From Rodentolepis nana (Eukaryota > Platyhelminthes > Cestoda > Cyclophyllidea > Hymenolepididae), in contig UZAE01013138.1 in assembly GCA_900617975.1 (NCBI GenBank), positions 1-26,026 of the forward strand: a stretch of DNA of 26,026 nucleotides. The letters are read 5' to 3'. The notes beneath the pieces are model-generated. The model did no database searches and had not been told where the DNA came from. It saw only the letters and a list, made by a program, of their open reading frames with translations. Each line of letters starts with the position of its first letter. Position 1 is the stretch's first letter. Below, one piece after another: positions 1,521 to 26,026 of this stretch. A program made the position numbers and the translations under genes.

Positions 1521-1592
1521 GGGGTGTGCGATAGACTTACCTCCACATGGTGCATCCTGGGCAACGTATGCTCCTACGGCAAAAAAGTCTAT
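1521..1592 (+). ncRNA. HDV-like ribozyme, SINE copy 1 (P1 weakened)
   Basis: Same fold as the consensus described for the copy at 19556. P1 pairs GGGGUGU with GCAUCCU, so one G-C has become G-U. L3 reads UCCACAU. P2 AUAGACUU/AAGUCUAU is intact, P4 is CGUA/UACG and the J4/2 cytosine is kept. It may be weakly active. Confidence 0.7.
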
Positions 1593-1847
1593 TAACCGGC
1601 AGTTGACTTCAAACTACCATGACCCCACTGTATGTCATATTCGACTGCTTCCACATTACTCGCCTCACCTGTTTTCTACCTTTGTGTCTGCCTCTTTTAC
1701 AGCTTTAAACACTCTTCTATTCCACTCCCCCCTCCCACTCTCTACATTTTTTCACTTTGATGTTCCTTCCCCTCTGTGAAGCCTGAAGTCGACTAAAGGG
1801 CTAATGATAATTATCAAAACGCCTGCCATTTGATATAAATAAATAAA
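1521..1847 (+). mobile_element. SINE-like retroposon with 5' HDV-like ribozyme, copy 1
   Basis: Full-length copy of the dispersed family. It starts with GGGGTGTGCG, has the 72-nt ribozyme fold, a C/T-rich body, the 3' block GCCTGAAGTCGACTAAAGGG, the ATGATAATTATCA hairpin, CCTGCCATTTGATA and an ATAAATAAATAAA tail. I see no clear target-site duplication at this copy, which suggests an older insertion. No protein is encoded. Confidence 0.85.
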
Positions 1848-4002: not shown

Positions 4003-6033
4003 TCACAATCCTACAAAATGTATTACCTTGTAAGTGGTTACTTCTGTTTTATTGACTCTATTTGTACCACGGCAGACCCCAAAATAGGTGACATCTGGAG
4101 GATCATTAAGTTCTTTCAGCACCATTAGCATAGATCCAGTATCATTCTTCAACGGTGCTGACGGCCAATCAGGTTGTGCCCTTGAGTAATCCCGCCAATT
4201 CTCAATTCCCTCAAGTCCCAATCGCATTGCATCAGCAAGTGCTCCTCTTCTCATTGGATAAGCATCGAGAGTCACTGTGGGCGGGGGGTTTCCACTAGCT
4301 ATGCACGTTACCCACTCTCCTGATTCGATTTTAAATGCCACCTTTGTCATACTCACTTGTTCTGGAGGTGTTGGAATGATTATGTAATCTGAAGCTGGAC
4401 TAAAGACACACAATTTTCTTGAAGCTCGTCGAATGATTTTCGCTCTTATTCTCTGCCATTCATTTCGATTTACAAGGGAAACATTCAGCAACTTTGGTTC
4501 TATTAAACAACTAAGTTTTGCATTGTGGTGGCTGCGGGTAATTGTTATTGGAACAGGTGCGTATTGAACCGTTTTTATCGGTGGCTTCCATTCTAATATA
4601 CGAAAAGAGAACAGACGCAGTGGGGAGGATTTATCAAAATTTCCCGAGGTGATATGCACAGTAGCGTCAGTTTCAACGAAACGAGAGCCAACAGGTTTGT
4701 CCTCCTCATCACAAAAAATCTGGAAGACAGTTGCTTGGCAGTAAACATTGATCACCTCACCTTCAGTGTAACAATCGTCTGATTGGTCTGGTTTTGTTAC
4801 AATTTGCACATCTGCATGGTTGTCAACAATACAGATAGGATATTCAGAAACCTGACTTAGAGACAAATTCCTCACTTCTCCTACCGGTCTGAGAGCTCCT
4901 ATAGTACAGCCGTAGAAACCGTAATCTTCGAAGGAACTTGACTGAATATCTATAGCGAATACCTCTCGATTTCTTCTACCGAAGTGATATGCAACAAGGC
5001 TTGGATGTGAAATATTTACCGTGTTATTAATCAAATCATGATAAGAGAGGATTTTCGCGAATTTATTCAGATGTGGTGAGACTGTATTTGCTGGGCGATT
5101 GATACGAAACCAGGTTAAATTCAATGCTGTTAGATAACTTCCTTCGCTTAGAATGCTTGGACATTCAACGGTGAACTTCTCTGGAAGGAGAATCATTCGT
5201 TTAGAAATTGACACCGTAGTAAAAGCAGGTGCTTTTTCATCACCAACCACCACAAATTGTATGGTCTTCTCGGACACCATTTTTTTGCCACCACAGAAAC
5301 TGCTCGCTACACACTTGTAAATATAAAATCCTGGCATGGGAAGTAAGTACAAATCTAATTTTGATGATTTGATAATTCTGGGAATACCACTAACTTCAAC
5401 TGAGTCATTTAAACGTGGCAAGGGTCCAAATCTATATACCCAAGTGAATTCATGTTCATGATAAATTTCCCCATCATCATAGCATTCTATAACTCCATCC
5501 CTTGCCATTGGTTCATTGGGATCCGGCCTCGTTTTTAGGCTCTCAGTGGGAGCACAAATCTTTAGGGGCCCAAATTTCTCGCCAAGTTCCCTTTCCTCTT
5601 TCGTGTCTAAATTCCAGTAGCACCCAACGTGCTTATCATAGTCAAAGTGAACGTTAAGATGCCAAGAAATATTAACCGTGTAGAAGGAATAATGTTGGAA
5701 TATTGTCTTCTCGGTTAGTATGGTAGGACTTTTGGTAATTTTGGCCATATTAGGATTGCGCTTAGTGGACTCCGCTATAAGAGGTTTGGTGAAATAGGTT
5801 TCGTAGGGATTTTGAAATCTCCATATTAAACATTGGCTCGTGAAATATTCATCATCGAAGAATGTGAGATACCTTGAATAGGAATCTGAGAATTCCCAAC
5901 TTCTATTTTCTGCTAAATACCCAATTATTGGAGATTGCTTATCTGCAGGGACTACAAGATCTGGAACTACTGGTGCATCGTAATAAACACTGTCTACGTG
6001 AAAACGGCACATATATCTTCCAGTATCATGCAT
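4003..6033 (-). CDS. Ig-repeat gene, exon 3 (residues 1553-2228 and stop)
   Basis: Opens directly after the acceptor AG with codons for MHDTGRYMC and runs 676 codons to a TGA at 4003-4005. Ig-like landmarks in order: DTGRYMC; FYIYKCVASSFCGG followed by the G-strand KTIQFVVV; EKFTVECP with FEDYGFYGC; GEVINVYCQ; WVTCIASGNPPPTV; and a final VTYFGVC with VTTYKVIHFV. The final G-strand resembles the earlier KTIQFVVV, which favours the stop being the genuine C-terminus. An alternative donor (TACAAG|GTAATA) lies just before the end, so a further exon with a membrane anchor cannot be excluded. Confidence 0.8.
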   Translation of the reverse strand: MHDTGRYMCRFHVDSVYYDAPVVPDLVVPADKQSPIIGYLAENRSWEFSDSYSRYLTFFDDEYFTSQCLIWRFQNPYETYFTKPLIAESTKRNPNMAKITKSPTILTEKTIFQHYSFYTVNISWHLNVHFDYDKHVGCYWNLDTKEERELGEKFGPLKICAPTESLKTRPDPNEPMARDGVIECYDDGEIYHEHEFTWVYRFGPLPRLNDSVEVSGIPRIIKSSKLDLYLLPMPGFYIYKCVASSFCGGKKMVSEKTIQFVVVGDEKAPAFTTVSISKRMILLPEKFTVECPSILSEGSYLTALNLTWFRINRPANTVSPHLNKFAKILSYHDLINNTVNISHPSLVAYHFGRRNREVFAIDIQSSSFEDYGFYGCTIGALRPVGEVRNLSLSQVSEYPICIVDNHADVQIVTKPDQSDDCYTEGEVINVYCQATVFQIFCDEEDKPVGSRFVETDATVHITSGNFDKSSPLRLFSFRILEWKPPIKTVQYAPVPITITRSHHNAKLSCLIEPKLLNVSLVNRNEWQRIRAKIIRRASRKLCVFSPASDYIIIPTPPEQVSMTKVAFKIESGEWVTCIASGNPPPTVTLDAYPMRRGALADAMRLGLEGIENWRDYSRAQPDWPSAPLKNDTGSMLMVLKELNDPPDVTYFGVCRGTNRVNKTEVTTYKVIHFVGL

Positions 6034-9000
6034 CTAAAAATAATATAATTTCTTTATATATTTACTTAGTGATTTAATAGTATTTTAAAATTTGGCACCT
6101 TAATTTATTGCAAAAATGTAATCTAAAGTAATGGTAAATAAAAATTTCGAAGAAATGCCCTCTTGTTTTTGCAGCAATAACTACGTTGATGAAATAAGTT
6201 CTTATTAATAAGTAGTGAACTTACAAATGCTTTTGGTAAATCAATTTTAACGACTTGATTGTCCTGATGGCCCTTGGTCAAAGAAATATCAAACTCCCTC
6301 CCCCTTCCAAAGGACCACCACCCGAGAAGTTTAAGATGATTAATCCTGGAGCTATCATTTTTCGGTTTATAGATAGTTAGGTGTAGCAGTGGAATTTCTA
6401 AAGGTTCGATAGAAGGAGCCTTTACTTGGGCAAGTAGAAACACATGGAAAAAAACTTCTGCATTCTCTGCTATCTCTCTTAGTGGGCATTTTATAGTCCA
6501 TGGGTCATCAGGATTAACCACTCCAAGGTCAGGTTCAATGGAACCTGAAGCTGTCCACCCACCGTTGGAACTCCCAAAGCCGTACATAATAACTGCTTCT
6601 TCGTAGGCTGTTTTGTTGTTTGGGCCCACTACATAGCAAACAAATTTTGCTTTACCAAAGAGTCCAACTTGGAAGACATAGGGAGCAGGCCACTTTAAAG
6701 TAAACTCATAGGGTGTTCTCCAATCCGGTCTTCTAAACTTCATTGGAAAGTAACTCATAGATACAAGGTATCCACGATGTCGTACAGATGCAGCTAAATC
6801 TTTAGTGAATTGGAATCGACGCAATCCAGATGCAAAGGTTTCTGGCGACGCTTCAAGCGGCGCCCAGGAGGCATTAATAGGTTCAGGATAAGCCAATACA
6901 CCACATTGCCATTGATAGTAGCCCACTCTAATGTAAGTGACTCTTGGGCCAACAGGGAATAGATTATCAATAGGATCACTAAGAAGTCGACTTTCTTCTT
7001 CAACCTCCCATGTTGGAATAGTTTCGCAAAAGAGAAAGGATTCAAAGTGTCGTACTGTGATCACTGGAATAGTATATTCAATCCTTCGAATGTAGGCACC
7101 ATCTCTCTCTCTATGGGAGATGCTACAATTAGCGAATGCGCCTTTTGGATGGATGTCCGATAAGACTTTTTCGTGGCTCCAGCAACCTGAATCTCTAAAA
7201 GGACTGAACATACAAGGGACGCTGATGTTCACTTTTCCACCACCCCGATTTGAACAGATGATCATATCTACAGACGACTCGATGTAAGACATTTGAAGAG
7301 CATGCATATGGTCTTGCCCAGTTACCGCTTCACAAATAAAAGTCACTCGAGAACCTTCAGTTAAGTTCGTCTTCGGTGGAAAAACTAATCTTTCAATGGT
7401 TGGTCTCATAGGGCAAATGGCGGAGAGGTTATGATAAATTGGCTCACTGACTAATGGCGGGAGATCATAGAGATTGTCTTTAAATTGACCTATTTGGCTA
7501 ACAGCGCAGTAAATTTCCCTATCTGCAGCTTCAGCAGGAAAGAAGGGCCAAATGAGTGGAACAGTCACGTTATGACCAATATTTCTATAGGAATATTCCA
7601 AGTCCATTGATGTTTTCTGAGTAATTATTACATAAGTATCGTTGTTTGGGGGTTGGTAGATGAGATAGACTTGAAATTTCAAGTGCGGCATCACAAATTC
7701 GCACTCAAATTCAGCTGAATCCATTGCTTTCACAGCTGGACTCTTTAATCTTAAAGTGGGCTTGGAGAATTCACCGCGGTTTAAACGAATCGGTAAGATG
7801 GCAACTTCTTGACTGGACTGAAAACATTAAGTGCATTATTGAAATGTGTTGCGAATTTAAATATAAATCCTTAGCCACACAAATACCTACTGCTCATAGT
7901 TTTTTCCTTAAAAACCTCATCAATTTATCAGTCTTCTGCATAATAATACCAACGTATTCGTTTATTGCCTACATCAGACAAGATATCTTCTTTTTTCTCT
8001 CCAAAAACACAATCTCTAAACTATCTTTTCCTCATTACTATCTTTCCTAGCAAGTTAGTAGGAATTTCCAACGATATAGGCTACCTTTTAAAATGCATCG
8101 AATTCTGAAATATCTTTATTGTTTCTTTTAAAGTAACTGATCATTTAGACTTACCAAAGTGTTCTTTACGCCTCGCTTGTAAACCAACAGATACTTTTTG
8201 TCAAGCTTCTTTTTCAAGGCCAACTCCAACTCAAAGTAGATGCAGTTGGAATCTAAGTTGCTTGGTTTTGACTTCAACAAGGGTTGCAAGCAAACGCTGT
8301 CCAAGTAATCCAAATCCGTCTCTCCTTGTTTTATATAATTAGCTTCTTCCTCATCAATCAAACACAGCCATGATGTTACCGGAGGCTTGTCAAAAGGCGT
8401 TTTTCTAATAATGGCAAAGATTTTAACAGTCTCTCCCGAGTAGAATTGATGTGGTTGATGACTCGAAAAAATAGCTACCATCAACGTTTCATCATATAAC
8501 ACAGCGGGTTTTGCAATAGCGCAAATCGCTTTAAAAAGTGGGAGGCGTTGGATAAAACTGGCACGACTATTAATACTGTATCTCTGGCATGTACTCGAGA
8601 AATTTGCTATCTGGATTGCATAATTAGGTGTACCTTTAGCCCACGTCTTGTCGTCTTCAAAGAACACGCTAATAACTTCGCCATAGACTTTTCTTATGTT
8701 TTGTATGAAGTTCTGCACGTCTCCAACGTCCCATCGATCTTGTGGAAGAACAACGGCAAAAGGTCTCTTGGAAGATCGGGGAGCGTCTCTTAGTGCTGTA
8801 ATGAAACCTTCTTTGAGATTGACAGGTAGCTTTTGAGGGCATGCATCGGGATCGGTTGCATAAATGGCCTGGGGTCTGATAATTTGTGAAATTAGACCTT
8901 CTGCAAGAGCAATTCTTGATGATTTGGTGCTGAAATGAGTTACAGAGGCATACAAGGGAGCTTCCCTCAAATTTCTACTCAGCACAGAAGTTGGATGCAA

Positions 9001-11217
9001 GCCAATACGGACTAATCCTTCTCCATAACCGAGACCCAAAATAATTTGCTGTAGCAAGTGAACATAACGCTCACCGTAGATATCCAAAGTAGACCTTTCA
9101 TTGTCTGAGTCTACTAGACTAATACCTGCGACAATCTGAGGCGATAAGATTAAAGACAGATCCAGTTGGACGAATCGGATGTCACATAAACAGATGCTTA
9201 AGAAAACAACTCTCTGAGAGGTGAATTCATGTCCGGCAAATTTATTCGAGGCAGTACATTTGAGGAGATAACTCATTCCCTTGTACTTCGGATCATTAGG
9301 GATTTTAAGTTGTTCGCCTTGGAAAGCAGATTTAGGTAAGCCATGAGGGCTGTCAAGGAAAATCTTTGACACTCTCGACATTCCGATAAAACCGGTGGAG
9401 AATTGAGTAGGATCAATCGCTGTCCACTTATATACAGGCTTTGGATATCCGTTAGCACCAGAACATCGAATAACAGTTCCTAGAGGGACGGGATACTCAT
9501 CCAGTCTATCAACCGTACCGTGGAATTTCAAGTCCCCTTCGGTTGGGTGGTACATGTGGATATATCGAAGATTCGCAGCTACTCGACCTAGCTCAGCATT
9601 TTCATTTACGTCATTTGGATCAATGATCCATTCCGGAATAGAACGTTCCATTTCTTCATAACTTGTTGAACAATATGCTCTTAATTTTCCCCCGTTATTA
9701 ACATTTCCCTCACCACTGATGCTGTAGAACTTGAATATCCGTATTATGTGAGTACCTTCACGAAGAATATACGTATTGGTCAAATTAAATGGAAATTCTG
9801 TAGTATCATTACCGTCCTCTTTAAGAAGGCTCAAGGAGAGGGTGTAGTCATACTTTGTATCCGTCTCTGTCCAACACAAAATGTAAGCTTTCTGTGTTGT
9901 CAACAAAAATGGCACCTTGTCCTCAGTAAATTGTTCAAACCTGTCTGTTGGTTCAAGGTCTTCTGTGGGAACTAGGTCCTTATATAATAAAGTCCGAACT
10001 GGTATAACATTACCAATTACATAAAGGCGTCTGTCAGAACACACAGGCTGCGGATATCCATTTACTTTTACAGTACATCCATAAACCCCACTGTCTGAAG
10101 TATCTGTAGAATTTTTCCTCAAATAGAAGAATTTATTTCCTTCAAAGTACTCAACCCAAAATCCACTTGGCAAGGTAGTATCAATTGTGTCGAAATATAA
10201 AGCTCGAGACCGGAAACAGTTAATCGCACGTGGAGACGCATGTTTCACAAGGGGACAGTAAATTTCCACCTTTTCACCCGCTTCAATAACAGCAGACCAA
10301 CCAATTTTTAAAGGAATCACACGATAATCCCTTCCAAAAACTGTCTCTGGGGCTGCCGGAGTGTCTACATATGGCATATCAAAACGCCACAACACCAGAC
10401 GTTTCATTACCCAATCTTTCAGCAAGCCGAGTGCTTGTTCATTACTAATTGAAGCATTCACTGAATTTGCGATGAAAATACCCATTGCAAAATCATCAAT
10501 ACTGGGTTGGCAGGAGAAATTGTGTAAACTGGCATTCGAGGAAATTTCGCAGGGTTCGTAATAGGGATAGTGGGTGTTTCTTGGTTGCCTGACTAAGTAA
10601 ATACCAATTACACCTGCTGGTAAACCGAGATTGACTTTGATAGATCCTTTAATAAAAATACCTTCATGAATGAATTTAAGTGTGCTATTCAGGTTATCAA
10701 GGTTCTGTTTATCTAGAACGGCCGCTGATGGACTTTTCAGAGCTTCTGTAATCTGAGGTACATTTGAAACGAGAGAAGTCAAGTGTAAAAGGGAAGGTGA
10801 TGATTTTACTAAGGTACTAACGGAAGTGAAATTATAATGCTTTCCGATGAAGGTTACAGTGATCTTATAATCTCCAATCATGGCACTTGTAGCTTTAAAA
10901 GCAAAGAGACGGAAGATATTCTCCTCAATGCGGATGCCATAAGAATCGAATGCTTGACATTGTTCGTATAGACAACCTTTAGGACACTTAAAGTAACTGT
11001 TCAAAACGGGTCCATCTTTCGATCCCGTATATTCGCAAAAGATGACCGTCTTATTCTGGAATTCCCAAGTTATGTTAGAAACTCTGTGACCGATACGTGG
11101 AACGAATTTGACAGACCAATCACCACCCTCTGTTGCTAATTGATCAGCTTCGTAATACTGAACTCGGCATTTTGCAGAAGAAAGTAGCAGAAGAAATAAT
11201 AACGGTATTAATTGCAT
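4003..11217 (-). CDS. large secreted Ig-repeat protein with a VWA-like region (3 exons, ~2228 aa)
   Basis: Gene model: join of 8155-11217, 6225-7817 and 4003-6033 on the minus strand. Both introns are short (337 and 191 bp), obey GT-AG and are phase 0, and the reading frame stays open across both joins. The product starts with a signal peptide (about residues 1-17: MQL followed by a leucine run ending in SSAKC) and has no obvious transmembrane segment, so it is predicted secreted. Several Ig-like units are visible through B-strand cysteines and the D-x-G-x-Y-x-C motif: C321 with DSGVYGC ending at C381; C585/W598/C654 with GYPKPVYKW; DTGRYMC at the exon 2/3 join; FEDYGFYGC; WVTCIASGNPPP near the C-terminus. 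N-glycosylation sequons are frequent. Residues ~675-880 look like a VWA fold. The family is unidentified. Roles in adhesion, extracellular matrix or the host interface are inference only. Confidence 0.85.
6034..6224 (-). other. intron 2 of the Ig-repeat gene
   Basis: Donor GCATTT|GTAAGTTCAC and acceptor TTATTTTTAG|ATGCAT on the minus strand, 191 bp, phase 0. The ATG after the acceptor is an internal codon, not a translation start. Confidence 0.8.
6225..7817 (-). CDS. Ig-repeat gene, exon 2 (residues 1022-1552)
   Basis: Bounded by TTTTCAG| and GCATTT|GTAAGT, exactly 531 codons, phase 0 at both ends. It begins SSQEVAILPIRL and soon shows an Ig B-strand cysteine (AEFECEF). Many cysteines (REIYCAV, RVTFICEA, FLFCET, AKFVCYV) are spaced as in divergent Ig-like domains, and NVT, NLT, NIS and NCS sequons are present. 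The last codons (VVKIDLPKAF) run straight into MHDTGRYMC of exon 3, giving a typical E-to-F strand of an Ig domain across the splice. This is strong internal support for the model. Confidence 0.85.
7818..8154 (-). other. intron 1 of the Ig-repeat gene
   Basis: Donor CTTTG|GTAAGTCT and acceptor AATGTTTTCAG|TCC on the minus strand, 337 bp, phase 0. After the acceptor the frame is open through 28 codons into the long exon 2 frame. Confidence 0.8.
8155..11217 (-). CDS. Ig-repeat gene, exon 1 (residues 1-1021)
   Basis: Starts at ATG (11217-11215), chosen because it is followed at once by a strong signal peptide. The exon ends at CTTTG|GTAAGT, after a leucine codon. The raw frame would run eight codons further to a TAA at 8128, but the consensus donor and the in-frame downstream exon argue that it is spliced. 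Residues 18-300 form one or two divergent domains with Cys61, Cys78, Cys82, Cys87 and sequons at N48, N55 and N129. An Ig domain covers about 310-400, another Ig-like region about 430-520, and a clear Ig domain about 575-670. The VWA-like region (~675-880) follows, then a Cys-containing beta-rich segment to 1021. Confidence 0.85.
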
Positions 11218-11230
11218 TTTTATTCCATCT
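11218..11230 (-). promoter_or_regulatory. short leader with candidate 3' splice acceptor
   Basis: On the minus strand a T-run ends in AG at 11230-11229, leaving an 11-nt leader before the start ATG at 11217. The leader itself begins ATG GAA TAA, a three-codon upstream ORF. This looks like a splice acceptor, for a 5' non-coding exon or for spliced-leader trans-splicing as is known in flatworms. No partner donor was identified. Confidence 0.4.
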
Positions 11231-13275
11231 AAAAAAAATATTAAAGTTGATGCATAAGAAGTTCAGCTGATCATTGATTAAAAATCAATATTTGGTAATT
11301 GTTTTAGATGATTTCACTGCCTTACGAACGTTATACAATTTATTGGTTCAAGTTAAATGAAATTTTGATGCGTCCTACAAATATAACAAATAATTTACTG
11401 ATTCCATTTAAGTAGCAAATCGTCGTCCATTTAATCGTTTAATAATTTTCAGTGATTATGAAACTATTATTATTGATATTAGCATTTAAACATTGAAAGA
11501 TATAACTTATAATTTAAAACGTTTAAAAGCACCTTAGCGTAAAGATGGCATTCCTGCTGATCGATTACAAGTAGAAACTAAAATTTTGAAACGAAATTTG
11601 ACTTCCAACTCTATTTTCGGGGCCTATTCCACTGTTTTGCACTCTTATTTCTTCTGTGGCTATTGATGAATGTCATAAAGTCTGAAATTTGAAAAATTAT
11701 TCTAATTTCTATTCGTTTCTGATTCTCTGAATTCCATTGACATTGCTATTATTTTAACCCCCTTAAATTTTCCATAGGAGGCTAAAGGGAGATTGATTTA
11801 AACACTGTATAGCTAATTCGAAATACGTTATCCTTACATTTTCTTCTTGGGTCTTTATTATTTCACCATTGATTAGAAAAACATAGAAAAAGATCTCACT
11901 TCCAGCATGTCCTTAAAATAAATTAATTTATAAAGTGCTTAATTCGGTAAATCTTCTTAAAGTTCCCTAGGATATTCCACCTTTGAGAAACAGGAGTATT
12001 TCAAATAGAAGCCAGTCTGTTTTTGGGTATTCATATAGAATATGGATTAGAAACAGCATGGTAACTCGTATTAAGAGTAAGTGATGCTATTCGCGTCCAT
12101 TTGGTCCGAAAATAATTCGGGAACTAGTTAGCCATCAACACCAAGTAATGGCGCAGAGGATTGTCATCACAACTGTTAACGCACGTCATGTTCGAAATCT
12201 CTGCACGGTGTATGACTCGTTACCGCCACACACACTCTTCATTCTCCCCGTCTACCTTGCCTAGATTTCTACCCGAAAGTATAATTAGCAATATCTTCGT
12301 TTTCCCATCTAAGTTCGATTTCATTTAAATTTCATTAAAATGTATATTTGTATTTTGTAATGGAGTTTAAGAACGGAAATGAAAATCGCGGGGGACATCG
12401 TGGTGCAAAAGTACAGATAAGATTGGACTGAGGAAGAATGTTCAATCAGTGAGAAAGTCATTTAGAAAACTTCCTAAGTAAGCAGTGTGATTTCATCTAT
12501 CCTCGAAGACGGTTATGAATCATTTGGTTGACTTGAACAGACAGATTATGCGCCATAAATAGTTTAAAACTTATTTGCCAAACTGAGTGAACGGACGGAA
12601 TAACGCGTAAAAGCGTTTAGAAATCATCAATACCAAACTGACACGCCTGGGAGAGTGACCACTCGTTGAGTTCGTACGGAATTCCAGTTAAATAATTGTC
12701 GAAATCACGATGCTTCATGGGTAGAAGGCGAGGAAAGAGAATTGGCATAAACTATCTTGGGTTAAAATTTGAGCTCTTCCTTTTGAATTTCGATATTTAG
12801 CATTAGATATAAATAAAAAATCCTCTGCAGTTGTTTATCTAAATATGCTCTCTCTCAGCTTCACTCTGTTTTCAGTTCCATCAATTTGTTTATAGCTGTT
12901 AAAATAAACAGGCAATTTAAGATGATAATACCAGGTAGAATTAAGTCAATCAACCAATCATCAAGCTACCAATTTACTGGACATGACCTCAGACATGGCC
13001 CTGCGAGTTAACTGCTGACGATTATACAATACAAAGTCCCAATTCAATCACTTTTATAAGGAAAAGTCATTTCTTCCAAAATCAAATAACGACTCATTAA
13101 TTACCCCCATTGTATAATTTTACTAATACTGTAAATGTATTATGTTGAAAGTACGAACTATCTTGAATGCGTGTTTAGAGGGTAATTATTTCTTAAGCTT
13201 ACCTTTGATTTACCTTATGAAGGTGTGTACCTACTTTTGTAGAATCCAGATTCATGAAGGTCATAGATGATTTTG
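11231..13275. other. upstream intergenic region, nothing recognised
   Basis: AT-rich with stops in all frames. It probably contains the promoter or a 5' exon of the Ig-repeat gene, but no core promoter motif can be singled out. Confidence 0.4.
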
Positions 13276-13670: not shown

Positions 13671-13741
13671 GGGGTGTGCGATAGACTTAACTCCTCGTGG
13701 TGCACCCTGGGCAACGCATACCCATTCGGCAAGAAGTCTAT
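13671..13741 (+). ncRNA. HDV-like ribozyme, SINE copy 2a (P3 and P4 mutated)
   Basis: P1 GGGGUGU/GCACCCU and P2 AUAGACUU/AAGUCUAU are intact and the J4/2 cytosine is present (GGCAAG). The P3 5' strand is AAC instead of ACC, so one pair is lost. P4 is degraded (CGCAU...AUUCG). Confidence 0.65.
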
Positions 13742-13878
13742 AAACGAGCAATTGACTTCTGACTTAAAACTAACATGATCCCATCGAATTCCATATTCGA
13801 CCACTTCACAGTACTCACCTTACCTTCTTCTCTACCTTCGTGTCTGCCTCTTTTACATCTGTGAATCACACCACTTAA
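13671..13878 (+). mobile_element. SINE-like retroposon, 3'-truncated copy 2a
   Basis: Starts GGGGTGTGCGATAGACTT and runs through the ribozyme and most of the C/T-rich body to about TACATCTGTGAATCAC. It is then interrupted by a second, 5'-truncated copy of the same family. The join contains short repeats of the TCTATTA motif, which suggests template switching or recombination at that motif. Confidence 0.8.
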
Positions 13879-14158
13879 AGTCTATTATGTCTATTAAAAA
13901 GTCTATTAACCGGCAGTTGACTTCTGACCACAAACTTTAATGGCCTCACTGTATGTTATATTCTATCCATTCCACAGTACTCATCTCTCATTTTTCCCTG
14001 CCTTTGTGTCCATATCTTTCGGATCTTTGATTCTCTCTTCTGCTCTCCCTGTCGAATTTTTCTTACTTTGATGTTCCTCCCCTCTGTGAAGCATGAAGTC
14101 AACTAAGGGGCTAATGATATTTATCAAAACGCCTGCCATTTGAAATAAATAAATAAAT
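13879..14158 (+). mobile_element. SINE-like retroposon, 5'-truncated copy 2b
   Basis: Lacks the ribozyme core. It enters the family around AAAAAGTCTATTAACCGGC, continues through the body to GAAGTCAACTAAGGGGCTAA and CCTGCCATTTGA, and ends in an AATAAATAAATA tail. With 2a it forms one composite insertion. An imperfect duplication flanks the pair (TTTTGAAAAT before 13671, TTTTCGAAAAT just after the tail), consistent with one composite retroposition event. Confidence 0.75.
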
Positions 14159-15519
14159 ATTTTTTCGAAAATACTTTCCGGATTTGTTGTAATTTGTCCA
14201 AAAAATACTTGAATGCTAAAAGGGATTAAAAATTTCGTTCTTTAAAAGGAATTTCCCAAAAAAACGAATCGACAAGTACTTGAACAGTTCCAATTGAGCT
14301 TCTAATATGATTCCTGGAGCTCACGTAAGACAAATGTTTGGTTGATGGAGCCTCTTTCAGTGATTTGATTTTCAGTTTTACGCCCATATCTTGGTTTGCT
14401 TTTAGCCCTCTAACGTCCAAATTATGTTTTTTGAAAAATTCACCCAACCGTACTCACGCCTGTCTCACAACAGACTGATGCTGTCGACATGGTGAGTTTT
14501 GGTGATGGCTGAAGACATATCGAACATGTTTCAAACGGCAATAGCGCCTTCTATTAGGAGTCTAGTACCTGTGGAGCTTATTTTGAACGCCAACCGTACT
14601 ATGATAAGGGCGCCAAAGGGTTGAACAATAAGCTTGTTCATACCGTGGTCTTAGTTAAACTCATAGGTAATAAGTCAGGGAGCTTTAGTAACACAGACGA
14701 ACATTTTGAAAAACGACTACGCTACCCCAAGCCATTGCGAAACTATCAAGTTTTCAAAAAACCTTTAAATTCTATTCTTTGTGCCTTATTAACGTCTGTG
14801 GATGCAACTGCTTTTGTACTAATACTAATATTCTAAAAATTGAGTGAATATTGCCTCAGGAGTAAGTGGTAAAAATGTGAAAGAAGTAACGACTCATTAC
14901 TGTATTTTATTGCTGGATGAATATTAAAATAGTCTAATATCACAATGCTTCCCAAATTACCACATTTTCTGATGGATAAAAATTTCTTTTCCCTTTGCGG
15001 GGTGTTGATGTTAGTCCAAGCGACATGGGATAAATGTTTGGTCAGTGGGTGGTTATCTTTTGGGAAAGAAATGCCTTTTATCCCAAAATCATACATCTTC
15101 CTATTGATAGTAATAACAACAATTTTTCCGAGGTAAATTTTAAATCAGGATTAATATTGGACTCTTTTTAATCGGTTCCATCCAGTACCTTGTCACAATA
15201 ACAAAAGCCAATAGATGCTTATAGACAAAAAAACAATTGCCTATTTATCGGCGCAAATAAACTCATTAGAGAAAATTGGTGAACAAAAACAATACGCAAG
15301 GTAGAAGGTGAGTACGATTCACCCGCCAATTAGATATTGGCAAAATCAGCGCCCCCCCCCCTCTACGGTGGCCTTGAGAAATTGTTTACATCTGCTTAAA
15401 AATCACCATTGGAGTCTGCTTTATGGGGTATTAGTGAGTGATCAATAGTGACAGTCCTGACAAGGAGGAAGTAGGAAATTAAAAGCACGGTTAAATACCC
15501 TCATCCATAATGACACTAC
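14159..15519. other. non-coding region with two faintly similar minus-strand frames
   Basis: No gene is supported. Two minus-strand frames (14226-14447 and 14833-15096) contain a shared TKHLS[YH]V stretch in an otherwise weakly alignable context, which hints at decayed copies of one element. A run of ten C lies at 15352-15361. Confidence 0.3.
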
Positions 15520-15704
15520 TATTGGGTTGGCAACTAAGTCATTGTCGTTTTTGTTGACGGATTCACTCTATACTTTCTTTTGTTTTGTTAACGTGGCCAG
15601 AGCATCTAACCTATATTTTTTTCTTACTGTATGGGCTTCTAGGTTAATTAGTAAAAAATTTTTTTTGTTTAGTTCTTTAGTTTTGTTTTTATTCCAATTT
15701 AAAT

Positions 15705-16711
15705 ATGAAAGAGCAGGACGTGCACTTCCGACACATTTTATTGTATTACTTCCGAAAAGGCAAGAACGCATCGCAAGCACAAAAGAAGTTATTTGCCGTA
15801 TATGGAGATGAAGCCTTAAAAGAAAGGCAGTGTCGAAATTGGTTTGAAAGATTTCGTTCCGGTGATTTTTCACTCAAAAATTCACAACGATCTGGCCGCC
15901 CAGTCGAAGTGGATGAAACCCATATCAAGGCCATTATCGATTCAAATCGTCACAGCACAACACGAGTTATTGCAGAGAAGCTCAATGTGTCGCATACTTG
16001 CATTGAAGATAAAAATTAAAAACCCTTGGTTATGTCAAGAAACTTGATTTATGGATCCCTCACCAGTTAAAGGAAATTCATTTGACGCAACGGATTAGCA
16101 TCTGTGATTCGCNGAAGAACCTAGTTACTGGCGACGAAAAGTGGATAGTTTATAACAATATTACTCGCAAGAGATCATGGGTGAAGCAAGATCAACCAGC
16201 CCAAACAGTATGAAAAGCAGAGATTCACCAAAAAAGATTATTCTGTTAGTCTGGTGGGATGACAAAGGAATTTTGTATTTTGAACTCATGCCGCAGAATC
16301 AAACGATAAATTCAAATGTGTATGTTGAAGAACTGGAAAAACTGAAAGAAGGATGCAATTGAAGATAAGCGGCCGGCATTATCAAATCGGCGGAAGGGTG
16401 TTGTTTTCCATCATGATAACGCAAGGCCCCACACATCTTTGGTTACTCGGCAAAAATTATTGGAACTGGGTTGGGGTGTTTTGTCACACCCACCATATAG
16501 CCCTGACCTTGCGCCTTTGAATTACCATTTGTTTCGTTCCATGTAAAACTCTTTAAATGGTAAAATTTTGAACAACGCGGATGATGTCGGATCACACCTA
16601 ATTCAGTTTTTTAATAGCAAAGACCAGACATTTTACAAAGGGGGCATTTTTACTCTGCCAGAAGGATGGAAAAAGGTCATCGACAAGAACGGCCAATATC
16701 TAATTGAATAA
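15705..16711 (+). pseudogene. mariner transposase, disrupted (copy A)
   Basis: The N-terminal part is readable from MKEQDVHFRHILLYYFRKG and includes the paired helix-turn-helix region (FRSGDFSLKNSQRSGRPVEV). The frame then breaks at about 16009, where GAAGATAAAAATTAA replaces an A-run, a 2-nt insertion relative to copy B. Later pieces in other frames still show VTGDEKW (first catalytic Asp), HHDNARPH (second) and SPDLAPLNYHLF (third), matching the DD34D arrangement of mariners. Further lesions shared with copy B are a TGA in the QTV*KAE segment, a one-base loss in the following A-run, an insertion around EKLKEGCN and a TAA after RSM. It cannot make transposase. Confidence 0.9.
16113..16113. 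other. N inside mariner copy A
   Basis: Unresolved position just before GAAGAACCTAG. Relative to copy B, about 23 bp are also missing just before it. The same N occurs at the equivalent site in copy B. Confidence 0.6.
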
Positions 16712-17683: not shown

Positions 17684-18031
17684 CTTTTTCCACAATTTAT
17701 TTATTTTTATCAAATGGCAGGTGTCTTGATGATTATCATCAGCCCTTTAGTTGACTTCAGGCTTGACAGAGGGGAAGAAACATCAAATTGAAAAAGTCGA
17801 GAGGGAGGGGAACAGAAGAGTGTTTCAAAGATGTAAGGGACAAACATAAAGGTAGAAAAAAGGTGAGGTGAGTACTGTGAAAATAGTCGAATATGGCATA
17901 AAGTGAGGTGATGGTAGTTTGAAGTGAGAAGTCAACTGCCAGTTAATAGACTTTTTTATCCTATGAATATTCGTTGCCAAGGGTGCACCACGTGGAAGTA
18001 AGTCTATCACACACCCCCTTTTTCCACAATT
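17684..18031 (-). mobile_element. SINE-like retroposon with TSD, copy 3
   Basis: A minus-strand copy whose body is 17698-18017, enclosed by a perfect 14-bp duplication CTTTTTCCACAATT at 17684-17697 and 18018-18031. The tail (TTATTTTTAT on the plus strand) adjoins the left duplication and the GGGG start adjoins the right one, as expected for target-primed reverse transcription. The 3' hairpin is unusually complete here: CTGATGATAATCATCA. Confidence 0.92.
17946..18017 (-). ncRNA. HDV-like ribozyme, SINE copy 3 (predicted dead)
   Basis: P1 and P2 are intact, but the J4/2 strand reads GGAUAAAA, so the presumptive catalytic cytosine is lost. J1.1/4 reads UGGC instead of GGGC and P4 is disrupted. 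It is predicted inactive, probably through decay after insertion. Confidence 0.75.
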
Positions 18032-18709: not shown

Positions 18710-18737
18710 CACGATGGCACTCTTTGACTTAGTCGAC

Positions 18738-18809
18738 TGGCCAAGAATCGAAGCCGTTGCTGAGTTTAGCTATTGGCCAAGAATCGAAGCCGTTGCTGAG
18801 TTTAGACTA
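18738..18809. repeat. tandem duplication, 36-bp unit
   Basis: The unit starting TGGCCAAGAATCGAAGCCGT occurs at 18738 and again at 18774, nearly identical over the full 36 bp. Confidence 0.9.
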
Positions 18810-18826
18810 CGTACGGACGGATTGCC

Positions 18827-18894
18827 TGGCAAAACACCTTCAAAGATTGGGAGTATACACTGGCAAAACACCTTCACATATTGGAAGTATACAC
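18827..18894. repeat. tandem duplication, 34-bp unit
   Basis: The unit starting TGGCAAAACACCTTCA occurs at 18827 and 18861 with a few differences (AAGATTGGGAG versus CATATTGGAAG). Confidence 0.9.
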
Positions 18895-18927
18895 TCAACC
18901 CACACGCCCCTATGTAACCTTTAGGAG

Positions 18928-18999
18928 GAAATGGAGAAGACCCACCTGATTCGGTGTCTAGCTGAAATGGAGAAGACCCACCTGATTCGGTGTCTAGCC
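18928..18999. repeat. tandem duplication, 36-bp unit
   Basis: The unit starting GAAATGGAGAAGACCCACCT occurs at 18928 and 18964, essentially identical, ending GGTGTCTAGC. Confidence 0.9.
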
Positions 19000-19148
19000 C
19001 TAAAGGCAACGACGGAAACCCAGAGGTACTGGGAAGCTAGAAGACAACTAATTAACTGCTATATATGTACCCCCCCCCCACATGGGGAAAGCTGAAGTCA
19101 ACTAAGGGGACAATGATAAATATCATAAAGCCTGCCATTTGAAATAAT

Positions 19149-19541
19149 ATCAATATTCTGCACGAACAAAGCTTCCCTATAACAATCCCAGCTCCTACTT
19201 AACACGGAAGTTTCCAAGTAAAATTTTTGAACTTGGCGTCTCTACAATATTTTCGCTAACTTGAAGGGAAGGAAATTTCAACTCTCCTATTTAAGTTAAA
19301 GCAAACGATCCTAAAATTTTCAAGAAAACAACAGTGAAGAGAGAGAGAGAGTGAGGGGGGGGGAGAGTTAGATAGGAAACAATTTTCATGTTATCATATG
19401 GCTTTTGAAGAAATATCCAGTTACCCTCGACAAATTAAGCCTTGAATATTAGTAGAGAAGTACAATTGCATCAATAAGCATTATTTCCCAAATTACAAGA
19501 GAAAGCATAAAAGTAAAACCTCAAGGTCTTCAGAAAAAATT
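19149..19541. other. non-coding with GA microsatellite
   Basis: A GA-rich run with a G9 stretch at about 19336-19367. Otherwise nothing recognised. Confidence 0.4.
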
Positions 19542-19893
19542 ATATTTTACAATATGGGGTGTGCGATAGACTTACCTCCACGTGGTGCACCCTGGGCAAC
19601 GTATACTCATACGGCAAAAAAGTCTATTGACCGGCATTTGTCTTCTGACTTCAAACTACCATGGCCCAACTGTTTGTCATATTCGACCCCTTCCACATTA
19701 CTCATCTTACCTTTTTCTCTACCTTTATGTCTGTCTGCCTCTTCTACATCTGTGAATCGCTCTTCTCTTCCCCACCCCTCGACTTTCTTCTACTTTGATG
19801 AACCTTCCCCCTGTGAAGCCTTAAGTCAGCTAAATGGCTAATGATAGCTATCAAAACGCCTGCCATTTTAAATAAATAAATATTTTACAATAT
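19542..19893 (+). mobile_element. SINE-like retroposon with TSD, copy 4 (best reference copy)
   Basis: Body 19556-19879, flanked by a perfect 14-bp duplication ATATTTTACAATAT at 19542-19555 and 19880-19893. It begins GGGGTGTGCG directly after the left duplication and ends with TGCCATTTTAAATAAATAA against the right one. There is no protein-coding potential and no recognisable tRNA-type A and B boxes. The 5' 72 nt are a consensus HDV-like ribozyme. Confidence 0.95.
19556..19627 (+). ncRNA. HDV-like self-cleaving ribozyme, SINE copy 4 (consensus)
   Basis: Numbering from the first G. P1 pairs 1-7 GGGGUGU with 32-38 GCACCCU and includes the G1-U38 wobble typical of delta ribozymes. P2 pairs 11-18 AUAGACUU with 65-72 AAGUCUAU. 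P3 pairs 19-21 ACC with 29-31 GGU. L3 is UCCACGU, whose CC can form P1.1 with the GGG at 39-41. P4 pairs 45-49 CGUAU with 54-58 AUACG. J4/2 is GCAAAA with C60 in the position of the catalytic cytosine, followed by AAA as in the C-N-R-A consensus. HDV itself has the same P1-GGGCAAC join. Cleavage is predicted just 5' of G1, exactly the element boundary shown by the target-site duplication. Confidence 0.87.
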
Positions 19894-20922: not shown

Positions 20923-21951
20923 TTATTCAATTAGATATTGGCCGTTCTTGTCGATGACCTTTTTCCATCCTTCTGGCAGAGTAAAAATGCCCCCTTTGTA
21001 AAATGTCTGGTCTTTGCTATTAAAAAACTGAATTAGGTGTGATCCGACATCATCCGCGTTGTTCAAAATTTTACCATTTAAAGAGTTTTACATGGAACGA
21101 AACAAATGGTAATTCAAAGGCGCAAGGTCAGGGCTATATGGTGGGTGTGACAAAACACCCCAACCCAGTTCCAATAATTTTTGCCGAGTAACCAAAGATG
21201 TGTGGGGCCTTGCGTTATCATGATGGAAAACAACACCCTTCCGCCGATTTGATAATGCCGGCCGCTTATCTTCAATTGCATCCTTCTTTCAGTTTTTCCA
21301 GTTCTTCAACATACACATTTGAATTTATCGTTTGATTCTGCGGCATGAGTTCAAAATACAAAATTCCTTTGTCATCCCACCAGACTAACAGGATAATCTT
21401 TTTTGGTGAATCTCTGCTTTTCATACTGTTTGGGCTGGTTGATCTTGCTTCACCCATGATCTCTTGCGAGTAATATTGTTATAAACTATCCACTTTTCGT
21501 CGCCAGTAACTAGGTTCTTCNGATCATTTTCATTGCGTTTCAGTAGCGAATCACAGATGCTAATCCGTTGCGTCAAATGAATTTCCTTTAACTAGTGAGG
21601 GATCCATAAATCAAGTTTCTTGACATAACCAAGGGTTTTTAATTTTTTTTCAATGCATGTATGCGACACATTGAGCTTCTCTGCAATATCTCGTGTTTTG
21701 CTGTGACGATTTGAATCGATAATGGCCTTGGTATGGGTTTCATCCACTTCGACTGGGCGGCCAGATCGTTGTGAATTTTTGAGTGAAAAATCACCGGAAC
21801 GAAATCTTTCAAACCAATTTCGACACTGCCTTTCTTTTAAGGCTTCATCTCCATATACGGCAAATAACTTCTTTTGTGCTTGCGATGCGTTCTTGCCTTT
21901 TCGGAAGTAATACAATAAAATGTGTCGGAAGTGCACGTCCTGCTCTTTCAT
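20923..21951 (-). pseudogene. mariner transposase, disrupted (copy B)
   Basis: The first 119 codons are open (MKEQDVHFRHILLYYFRKG to KKLDLWIPH) and include the DNA-binding helices and the WIPH linker. A CAG-to-TAG change then stops translation at 21592-21594, a lesion not present in copy A. Downstream the frame carries the same TGA, A-run loss, insertion near EKLKEGCN and TAA after RSM as copy A. The catalytic Asp motifs (TGDEKW, HHDNARPH, SPDLAP) remain visible. Confidence 0.9.
21521..21521. other. N inside mariner copy B
   Basis: On the transposon's coding strand it lies between GATC and GAAGAAC. The conserved protein context (ND-P-F-LKNLVTGDEKW in related transposases) suggests about seven bases are hidden, so the N stands for a short gap. 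Confidence 0.6.
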
Positions 21952-22137
21952 ATTTAAATTGGAATAAAAACAAAACTAAAGAACTAAACAAAAAAAATTT
22001 TTTACTAATTAACCTAGAAGCCCATACAGTAAGAAAAAAATATAGGTTAGATGCTCTGGCCACGTTAACAAAACAAAAGAAAGTATAGAGTGAATCCGTC
22101 AACAAAAACGACAATGACTTAGTTGCCAACCCAATAT

Positions 22138-22357: not shown

Positions 22358-22701
22358 TCTTGACTAAAGTTTGTTGTTTGTATCAAATGGCAGGCATCTT
22401 GATGGTTATCATTAGCCCTTTAGTTGCCTTCAGGCTTCACAGAGGGGGAGGAACATCAACTTGAAAAAAGTCGAGAGGGGGAAGAGAGGAGTGTTTCAAA
22501 GATGTAAGAGACGAATACAAAGGTAGAACAAAGGTGAGGTGAGTATTGCGGAAATAGTCGAATATGGGATAGAGTGGGGGTGATGTAGTTTGAAGTGAGA
22601 AGTCAACTGCCAGTTAGTAGACTTTTTTGCCGTATGAGTATACGTTGCCCAGGGTGCACCACGTGGAGGTAAGTCTATCGCACACCCCTCTTGACTAAAG
22701 T
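22358..22701 (-). mobile_element. SINE-like retroposon with TSD, copy 5
   Basis: Body 22371-22688 on the minus strand, enclosed by a perfect 13-bp duplication TCTTGACTAAAGT at 22358-22370 and 22689-22701. The GGGG start lies exactly against the right-hand duplication. Confidence 0.93.
22617..22688 (-). ncRNA. HDV-like ribozyme, SINE copy 5 (near consensus)
   Basis: Identical to the consensus through P1, P3, L3, P4 and J4/2 (GGCAAAA). Only the last base of P2 differs (AAGUCUAC), removing one terminal pair. Predicted active. Confidence 0.85.
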
Positions 22702-24627: not shown

Positions 24628-24955
24628 AGGTCAACAACTCTTTTTTATTCTATCAAATGGCTGGCGTTTTGATGGTCATCATTAGCCTTTAGTTGACTTC
24701 AGTCTTCAAAGAGGGGAAGGAACATCAAAAAATTCAAAAGGGACAGAAGAGTGTATCAAAGAGGAAGGTAGATAAGGTGGATAAAGGTGAGATGAGTACT
24801 GTGAAAGTGATGGAATATGGCATACAGTGGGTTGATGGTAGTTTGAAATCAGAAGTCAACTGCCAGGTAATAGACTTTTTTGTCGTATGAGTATACGTTG
24901 CCCAGGGTGTACCACGTGGAGGTAAGTCTATCATACACCCCAGGTCAACAACTCT
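24628..24955 (-). mobile_element. SINE-like retroposon with TSD, copy 6
   Basis: Body 24642-24941 on the minus strand, enclosed by a perfect 14-bp duplication AGGTCAACAACTCT at 24628-24641 and 24942-24955. It is slightly shorter in the body than copies 4 and 5. Confidence 0.93.
24870..24941 (-). ncRNA. HDV-like ribozyme, SINE copy 6 (P1 pair improved)
   Basis: P1 is GGGGUGU with ACACCCU, so the U7-G32 wobble of the consensus has become a Watson-Crick U7-A32 pair. P2, P3, L3 and P4 are intact. J4/2 is GACAAAA and retains the cytosine. Predicted active. Confidence 0.82.
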
Positions 24956-25826: not shown

Positions 25827-25898
25827 GGGGTGTGCGATAGACTTACCTCCACGTGGTGCAACCTGGGCAACGTATACTCATACGGCAAAAAAGTCTAT
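25827..25898 (+). ncRNA. HDV-like ribozyme, SINE copy 7 (one P1 mismatch)
   Basis: Consensus except that the P1 3' strand is GCAACCU, which gives a G4-A mismatch in the middle of P1. All other helices and J4/2 are intact. Activity is probably reduced. Confidence 0.78.
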
Positions 25899-26026
25899 TA
25901 ACTGGCAGTTGACTTCTCACTTCAAACTACCATCACCCCACTGTATGTCCTATTCTCCAACTTTCGCAGTACTCACCTCACCTTTCATCTACCTTTTCTA
26001 CCTTCGTCTTTGAAACACTCTTCTGT
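25827..26026 (+). mobile_element. SINE-like retroposon, copy 7, cut by the window end
   Basis: Starts GGGGTGTGCGATAGACTT and continues through the ribozyme and the first part of the C/T-rich body to the end of the window. The 3' end and any right-hand target duplication are outside. Confidence 0.9.

What the first reader, a model, noticed from the sequence alone, without database searches (positions are those of the whole stretch)
19556..19627. A SINE-like family in this genome begins with an HDV-like self-cleaving ribozyme
The first 72 nt of the dispersed retroposon fit the nested double-pseudoknot plan of delta ribozymes in every part: 7-bp P1 with the G1-U38 wobble, 8-bp P2, 3-bp P3, an L3 loop with CC that can form P1.1 with the GGG after P1, a P4 hairpin, and J4/2 with a cytosine followed by AAA. 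The join after P1 (GGGCAAC) is the same as in HDV. HDV-like ribozymes are known at the 5' ends of R2, RTE and trypanosome L1Tc/NARTc elements, where they process the 5' end. I know of none described for a flatworm SINE (schistosome SINE-like elements carry hammerheads instead). Novelty is inference and needs a literature check.
Basis: partly seen in the sequence, partly recalled or inferred. Interest (0 to 1): 0.93.

Follow-up and report, generated by a model that had tools for sequence, protein, structure and literature searches.

The report
Tapeworm jumping genes headed by ribozyme
A tapeworm genome holds thousands of copies of the core of a 72-base RNA motif that heads a short jumping gene and is predicted to cut itself exactly at the element's first base; the longer jumping gene that likely moves it starts with the same motif, a design known from fly and trypanosome elements but not found described for tapeworms in the papers searched.

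Summary
The motif heads a ~325-nt dispersed element whose 14-nt target-site duplication (TSD) abuts G1. The genome has 4376 exact copies of a 21-nt core of the motif (reversed control 0). In 68 SINE copies conservation jumps at G1; 37 have a TSD of 10 nt or more, ending exactly at G1 in 23 and within 1 nt in 33. New here: a LINE with endonuclease, reverse transcriptase and RNase H begins with the same ribozyme and ends with the SINE's 3' tail, so the short element shares both ends with a likely partner. This is the anatomy of Drosophila R2 SIDEs and trypanosome L1Tc/NARTc. COX1 places the host among tapeworms. Corrections: an HDV-like ribozyme is already listed for a planarian R2 element, so the phylum is not new, and no pol III signals were found. 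Covariation is weak; cleavage was not tested.

The parts
19542..19555 (+). 5' copy of the 14-nt target-site duplication ATATTTTACAATAT
19556..19627 (+). HDV-like ribozyme; predicted cleavage just 5' of G1 (19556)
   Evidence: RF02682 44.5 bits; descriptor; identical to the SINE majority sequence of 80 copies
19556..19562 (+). P1 5' strand (pairs with 19587-19593; G1.U38 wobble)
   Evidence: sequence; 90.0% of cells paired in 96 distinct copies
19566..19573 (+). P2 5' strand (pairs with 19620-19627, pseudoknot)
   Evidence: sequence; 80.6% of cells paired
19574..19586 (+). P3 (19574-19576/19584-19586) with L3 UCCACGU 19577-19583
   Evidence: 94.4% of cells paired
19594..19599 (+). J1.1/4 GGGCAA; G39 and G40 pair with C24 and C23 of L3 (P1.1)
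   Evidence: P1.1 cells 96.9% paired
19600..19613 (+). P4 hairpin (19600-19604/19609-19613)
   Evidence: 94.0% of cells paired
19615..19615 (+). C60, the equivalent of HDV C75 (catalytic)
   Evidence: C in 76 of 80 SINE and 21 of 22 LINE copies; equivalence to C75 recalled
19620..19627 (+). P2 3' strand
19628..19813 (+). SINE-specific body, pyrimidine-rich; among the LINE loci held, found only as SINE copies or pieces
19814..19879 (+). 3' tail shared with the LINE 3' end, ending in AAATAAATAA
19880..19893 (+). 3' copy of the target-site duplication
1521..1845 (+). SINE copy with ribozyme at 1521-1592
13671..14163 (+). SINE copy in two overlapping pieces (element 1 to ~203, then ~62 to its tail); weak ribozyme match (25.4 bits)
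17698..18017 (-). SINE copy with TSD; decayed ribozyme, no Rfam match
22374..22688 (-). SINE copy with ribozyme and TSD
24641..24941 (-). SINE copy with ribozyme and TSD
25827..25996 (+). 5' part of a SINE copy near the window end
18715..19158 (+). 3' part of a copy of the partner LINE, with the shared tail at 19092-19157

Best explanation
The 72-nt head of this dispersed retroelement is predicted to fold as an HDV-like ribozyme that likely cuts read-through transcripts exactly 5' of G1, and the same head and tail are found on a LINE that would supply the enzymes for its movement. Proposed cycle (inferred): an element lying inside a host transcription unit is co-transcribed; the ribozyme folds and cleaves before G1, leaving a 5'-OH at G1; the LINE protein binds the shared ~65-nt 3' tail and copies the RNA at a new nick by target-primed reverse transcription. 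Because the whole ribozyme lies downstream of the cut, each full-length daughter copy carries a complete ribozyme and can be released from any new location. Shown here: the fold-compatible sequence, the sharp 5' boundary at G1, the flush target-site duplications, and the shared ends of LINE and SINE. Inferred: catalysis, co-transcription, and LINE-driven mobility.
For: RF02682 over the curated cut-off at 19558-19627 and in 37 genome copies; P2, absent from the model's structure line, is complete; P1.1 cells 96.9% paired. Boundary: in 68 SINE copies information content is at most 0.55 bits at each of the 12 positions before G1 and at least 1.07 at each of positions 1-12; in 20 LINE 5' ends 0.07-0.36 bits at -6..-1 against 0.95-2.0 at +1..+10, base 1 being G in 15 of 20. 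TSD of 10 nt or more in 37 of 68 (1.1% with swapped flanks); flush at G1 in 23 and within 1 nt in 33 of 37. 73 of 112 SINE HSPs that reach the tail start within 5 nt of G1. LINE: 354 places for a pattern from its 5' coding start, up to 3 mismatches (control 0); 16 of 20 fetched 5' ends match RF02682 at E <= 0.01; endonuclease domain in L073, RT and RNase H in P0124; the SINE tail lies downstream of RT in 11 of 20 loci of this LINE family (E <= 7e-7). Head and RT lie on one strand 0.3-2.0 kb apart in seven contigs (C4476, C2663, C3298, C2860, C2606, C2383, C2728; coordinates, whose lists are partial). LINE and SINE majority ribozymes differ at 5 of 72 positions (7, 41, 50, 51, 54), none in L3, P1.1 or J4/2 (sequences). 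No A or B box; TTTT in 68 of 68 copies.
Against: No cleavage assay or transcript 5'-end data. Covariation is weak: 7 pairs change on both sides against 4.0 in shuffles (33 of 500 as high), and five of six slid registers give more such pairs (8-10; the sixth gives 3). P1.1 counts equal the shuffles, and a slide by one column pairs almost as well (95.9% and 87.0%), so they discriminate little. The LINE majority has a U49xU54 mismatch at the loop end of P4. By my rule (all helices plus C60 and C42) 46 of 80 SINE and 11 of 22 LINE copies look intact, and L001-L030 were picked by Rfam score, so the genome-wide share is probably lower. 1 of 20 LINE heads reaches the RF02682 cut-off. 31 of 68 SINE copies lack an exact TSD of 10 nt. 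By eye no TSD surrounds L085, and no LINE head was found upstream of the RT in L061/L093. A promoter that starts transcription at G1 would also give a sharp 5' end.
Confidence: 0.87

Rival explanations
1. The 72 nt act as an internal promoter that starts transcription at G1, and the ribozyme fold is inert or secondary.
For: In trypanosomes the Pr77 head of L1Tc/NARTc is described as both promoter (DNA) and HDV-like ribozyme (RNA) (PMC4035085, passages). A start at G1 would give the same boundary.
Against: A promoter alone does not predict eight matching P2 pairs or a C at position 60 in 76 of 80 SINE copies, nor a covariance-model match over cut-off. Both functions may coexist.
Confidence: 0.07
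2. It is an ordinary pol III SINE whose head resembles a ribozyme by chance or descent.
For: Short, dispersed, LINE-type tail and TSDs.
Against: No A or B box in the majority sequence and TTTT runs in 68 of 68 copies; ARAGORN finds no tRNA in the window; Rfam finds only HDV families in the window at E <= 1; the LINE has the same head; the descriptor gives 0.009 hits per shuffled window.
Confidence: 0.02
3. The ribozyme is a relic: ancestors cleaved, but present families are dead, and the shared head only reflects common descent.
For: SINE copies have a median of 87% identity to the majority sequence (range 75-92%), and the two LINE copies read in detail are damaged: L085 lacks most of the endonuclease part and the C2663 copy is broken in all frames.
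Against: Many copies keep every predicted part, and the window copy equals the family majority; L085 has a 609-residue open frame with RT and RNase H (one undetermined residue). Even so, past activity would remain the cause of the flush 5' ends.
Confidence: 0.04

Closest known systems
R2 SIDEs of Drosophila (PMC3414825; abstract and passages seen)
   Same: A 5' HDV-like ribozyme plus the 3' end of an autonomous non-LTR element, with a central part unlike the autonomous element (197 bp in R2Dwi_SIDE); not pol III; released from a co-transcript. The R2/R1 hybrids have 14-bp TSDs.
   Different: SIDEs sit at fixed sites in 28S rRNA genes; here insertions are dispersed, the core motif occurs 4376 times exactly, and the partner LINE has endonuclease (PF14529), RT and RNase H domains.
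L1Tc/NARTc and ingi/RIME of trypanosomes (PMC4035085; passages seen)
   Same: A LINE with AP endonuclease, RT and RNase H and its short partner share a 77-nt 5' head that is an HDV-like ribozyme.
   Different: Distant hosts; Pr77 is also a demonstrated promoter, untested here; no sequence comparison with Pr77 was made and clade membership was not tested.
R2 ribozyme of the planarian Schmidtea mediterranea (PMC3774820; passages seen)
   Different: R2, site-specific, cut placed 28 nt upstream in 28S rRNA rather than at the element's first base.
Rfam RF02682, HDV-F-prausnitzii
   Same: Same P1, P3 and P4 plan and core; matches in this genome score up to 54.5 bits.
   Different: Model named for a gut bacterium; P1 and P4 letters differ with pairing largely kept (alignment).
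Hammerhead retrozymes of animals, platyhelminths included (PMC7229834, three passages; PMC7761336, passages)
   Same: Small non-autonomous retroelements with a self-cleaving ribozyme.
   Different: Hammerhead rather than HDV fold, tandem repeats and circular RNA; here copies with TSDs and a LINE-type tail.

Membership tests
HDV-like ribozyme (RF02682) | Covariance-model score over the curated cut-off | tested here: met
   44.5 vs 44 bits for the window copy; 37 genome copies over it; 1 of 20 LINE 5' ends over it, 16 of 20 at E <= 0.01
HDV-like ribozyme (RF02682) | Nested double pseudoknot: P1, P2, P3, P1.1, P4 | tested here: met
HDV-like ribozyme (RF02682) | Catalytic C in J4/2 | tested here: met
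   C60 in 76 of 80 SINE and 21 of 22 LINE copies
HDV-like ribozyme (RF02682) | Compensatory change in helices among relatives | tested here: inconclusive
   7 pairs vs 4.0 in shuffles, slid registers 3-10; pairing largely kept against the Rfam consensus with different P1 and P4 letters
HDV-like ribozyme (RF02682) | Self-cleavage 5' of G1, dependent on C60 | not testable with these tools
   no wet-lab or transcript data
Classical HDV ribozyme (RF00094) | Covariance-model score over the curated cut-off | tested here: not met
   36.7 vs 50 bits
SIDE (short internally deleted element with ribozyme) | 5' ribozyme shared with an autonomous-type LINE | tested here: met
SIDE (short internally deleted element with ribozyme) | 3' end shared with that LINE | tested here: met
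   tail downstream of RT in 11 of 20 LINE loci
SIDE (short internally deleted element with ribozyme) | Target-site duplications from target-primed reverse transcription | tested here: met
   37 of 68 copies, 1.1% with swapped flanks
SIDE (short internally deleted element with ribozyme) | Actually mobilised by that LINE | not testable with these tools
   inferred from shared ends
Pol III SINE | A and B boxes, small-RNA head | tested here: not met
RTE-clade LINE (partner) | No RNase H domain (recalled) | tested here: not met
   PF00075 in the partner's open frame
I/ingi/L1Tc-type LINE (partner) | AP endonuclease, RT and RNase H | tested here: met
   PF14529 in L073, PF00078 and PF00075 in P0124
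I/ingi/L1Tc-type LINE (partner) | Clade by RT phylogeny | not tested
   no labelled reference RTs at hand; one search gives relatives by similarity only

The most novel reading that the evidence does not exclude
Tapeworms carry an animal counterpart of the trypanosome L1Tc/NARTc system: an RNase H-bearing LINE and a high-copy SIDE both headed by the same HDV-like ribozyme, so that thousands of self-cutting cassettes lie scattered through the genome and cleave host transcripts wherever they are read through, making the worm's gene expression tolerate or use this cutting.
Probability: 0.3. Interest if true: 0.8.

Novelty: new member of a known kind. Interest (0 to 1): 0.6.

Why it matters
It would extend ribozyme-processed retroelements to tapeworms and to a dispersed, high-copy short element, beyond the rDNA-bound SIDEs. 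Thousands of copies differing by a few letters in one genome form a natural mutation series for relating ribozyme sequence to cleavage and to retrotransposition success. It also raises the question of what happens to worm transcripts that contain sense-oriented copies, and it asks whether the likeness to L1Tc/NARTc is convergence or common descent.

Tried and rejected
A DNA search of the own genome with the 72 nt gave nothing; the tool says that it skips very common words. The exact 21-mer gave 4376 places. My first P1.1 count used wrong columns and was redone. The RTE clade was rejected for the partner because it has RNase H. A tRNA, 5S or 7SL head was rejected. Ten of the 30 RT loci form another family and gave no match to the SINE. 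A total copy count with up to 3 mismatches did not complete, so total copy number is unknown; the 21-mer count includes partial and tandem copies and misses mutated ones. Host species could not be named: COX1 is 86% identical to the best named record. A PDB sequence search with the RT gave only distant L1 and R2-type matches. The contig upstream of L061 (L093) held no LINE head.

Rows dropped: 155 SINE HSPs were cut to 78 with query start <= 12 and end >= 300, then to 68 with flanks and unique junction. In one search the cut was start <= 12 and end >= 200 (SINE, 80 rows) or >= 115 (LINE, 22 rows); L110, with a deletion in the head, did not enter. In one search the LINE boundary list was picked by hand, without L096 (internal duplication) and L051 (near a locus end). 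L001-L030 were picked by Rfam score and L031-L060 by the exact 21-mer, so intactness counts are biased upward.

Full report
What was checked. Rfam's RF02682 matches 19558-19627 at 44.5 bits against a cut-off of 44 (E 2.3e-5), and five other places in the window at 25.4-43.2 bits; the classical HDV model RF00094 matches the same site at 36.7 bits, below its cut-off of 50. P2 is a pseudoknot outside the structure lines of these models and is complete: eight Watson-Crick pairs between 11-18 and 65-72. My own descriptor (P1 at least 6 of 7, P2 at most one mismatch, P3 3 of 3, P4 at least 4 of 5, CC in L3, GG after P1, C in J4/2) hits five of seven copies in the window and gives 30 hits in 3468 dinucleotide-shuffled windows. 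It was written after seeing the sequence.

The element. A BLAST search in the window finds further copies at 1521-1845 +, 13671-14163 + (two overlapping pieces), 17698-18017 -, 22374-22688 -, 24641-24941 - and 25827-25996 +. The window copy at 19556 is flanked by ATATTTTACAATAT on both sides, flush at G1 on the left and after the A-rich tail on the right. In the 107-Mb genome the 21-nt string from G39 through P4 to G59 occurs exactly 4376 times, the reversed control 0 times; this counts cores, not complete elements.

The 5' end. In 68 non-redundant full-length SINE copies the information content is at most 0.55 bits at each of the 12 positions before G1 and at least 1.07 bits at each of positions 1-12. 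Of these copies 37 of 68 have an exact repeat of 10 nt or more across the element (1.1% on average when flanks are swapped); its right end is flush with G1 in 23 and within 1 nt in 33 of 37; 24 of 37 are 13-14 nt. Of 112 SINE HSPs that reach the tail with room upstream, 73 start within 5 nt of G1. The 5' end of the inserted RNA is thus fixed, in most copies examined, at the base where an HDV-like ribozyme of this fold would cut.

The partner. 20 of 30 reverse-transcriptase loci form one LINE family. The SINE's last ~65 nt match downstream of RT in 11 of these 20 (L061, L062, L068, L073, L075, L076, L082, L084, L085, L086, L089, and with the majority tail all at E <= 7e-7). L085 also carries the ribozyme upstream, followed by a coding start that reads like an AP-endonuclease N-terminus (by eye). 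A pattern from that start occurs at 354 places with up to 3 mismatches. Twenty 5' ends were fetched: unrelated flanks give way to GGGGTGCGCGATAGACTT...; 16 of 20 match RF02682 at E <= 0.01, one over the cut-off. In seven contigs the pattern and an RT hit lie on one strand 0.3-2.0 kb apart (coordinates, partial lists). Domains: endonuclease PF14529 in L073, RT PF00078 and RNase H PF00075 in P0124; a further open stretch of L073 gave none. The LINE and SINE majority ribozymes differ at 5 of 72 positions (7, 41, 50, 51, 54), outside L3, P1.1 and J4/2 (sequences); one of these breaks the loop-end pair of P4 in the LINE. The SINE body (81-255) is found, among the LINE loci held, only as SINE copies or pieces, apart from two 21-nt chance-level matches. 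So the two elements share their two ends and, in what I hold, little else. Upstream of the RT in L061 no head was found. The window holds a LINE 3' part too, at 18715-19158.

Transcription. The SINE majority sequence has no A or B box by the consensus patterns used, and has T runs at 157, 186 and 228; TTTT occurs before the last 60 nt in 68 of 68 copies. This speaks against full-length pol III transcripts and for co-transcription or an internal pol II promoter; which one is not settled.

Structure counts. On 102 copies (96 distinct; 22 LINE, 80 SINE) 88.2% of cells pair at register, against 32-53% when slid and 87.7% in shuffles (2 of 500 as high). Covariation beyond shuffles is weak: 7 pairs changed on both sides against 4.0 expected, 33 of 500 shuffles as high; five of six slid registers give 8-10 and one gives 3; covariation score 0.099 against 0.093 in shuffles (9 of 500) and 0.025-0.063 slid. 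This is expected of near-identical, decaying copies, and it neither supports nor refutes the fold. P1.1 cells pair in 96.9%, no more than in shuffles and little more than slid by one. By rule, 46 of 80 SINE and 11 of 22 LINE copies keep all helices, C60 and C42; the sampling favours intact copies.

Host. COX1 (read under flatworm mitochondrial code 9) has its best named match in Pseudanoplocephala crawfordi (86%), then Taenia serialis (84%); the named records down to Khawia sinensis are cestodes (placement of some genera recalled). The LINE's relatives include Rodentolepis nana proteins at up to 92% over short stretches.

What is known. R2 SIDEs have the same anatomy, including an unrelated centre (PMC3414825, abstract and passages). 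L1Tc/NARTc share an HDV-like 5' head, and L1Tc has AP endonuclease, RT and RNase H (PMC4035085, passages). R2 of the planarian Schmidtea is listed with an HDV-like ribozyme cutting at -28 (PMC3774820, passages), so such ribozymes are not new to flatworms. Retrozyme-like repeats with hammerheads are reported for platyhelminths (PMC7229834, passages). Ten searches of the held library showed no paper on an HDV-like ribozyme in a tapeworm or in a flatworm SINE; for most I saw only the top rows of long lists with the start of each abstract, and subscription papers are mostly not held. Passages were seen of five papers; no paper was read whole.

Verdict. A well-supported new member of a known kind: a ribozyme-headed LINE/SIDE pair in a tapeworm, unusual for its copy number and dispersed insertion. 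Catalysis and the transcription mode remain to be shown.

Noticed in passing
15681-16019 + and 21592-21975 -: Two similar, oppositely oriented open frames (112 and 127 aa) with the N-terminal HTH domain of a Mos1-type mariner transposase (PF17906); related DNA also lies in L065 and L072.
   Followed up: partly
L002:2652-2941; L009; G000 contigs C26, C34, C42: A tandem array of a ~39-nt piece of the ribozyme in L002, repeated partial matches in L009 and closely spaced core matches elsewhere, perhaps from template jumps or slippage.
   Followed up: partly
L096:140-211 and upstream: A LINE head with an internal partial duplication of the ribozyme.
   Followed up: no
4003-11262 -: Three long open frames on the minus strand (676, 567, 1044 aa) without Pfam match; the 676-aa one has two relatives in unnamed contigs and one Ig-like protein of the tapeworm Schistocephalus solidus (28%).
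   Followed up: partly
G000 RT loci L063, L064, L066, L069, L070, L071, L074, L081, L083, L088: A second RT family in the same genome, with shorter RT domains (LTR-like by their span, by eye).
   Followed up: no
upstream of G1 in 68 SINE copies, positions -12 to -9: T-rich stretch 9-12 nt before G1 (T in 31-44 of 68), perhaps the trace of the LINE endonuclease's target preference at the TSD edge.
   Followed up: no
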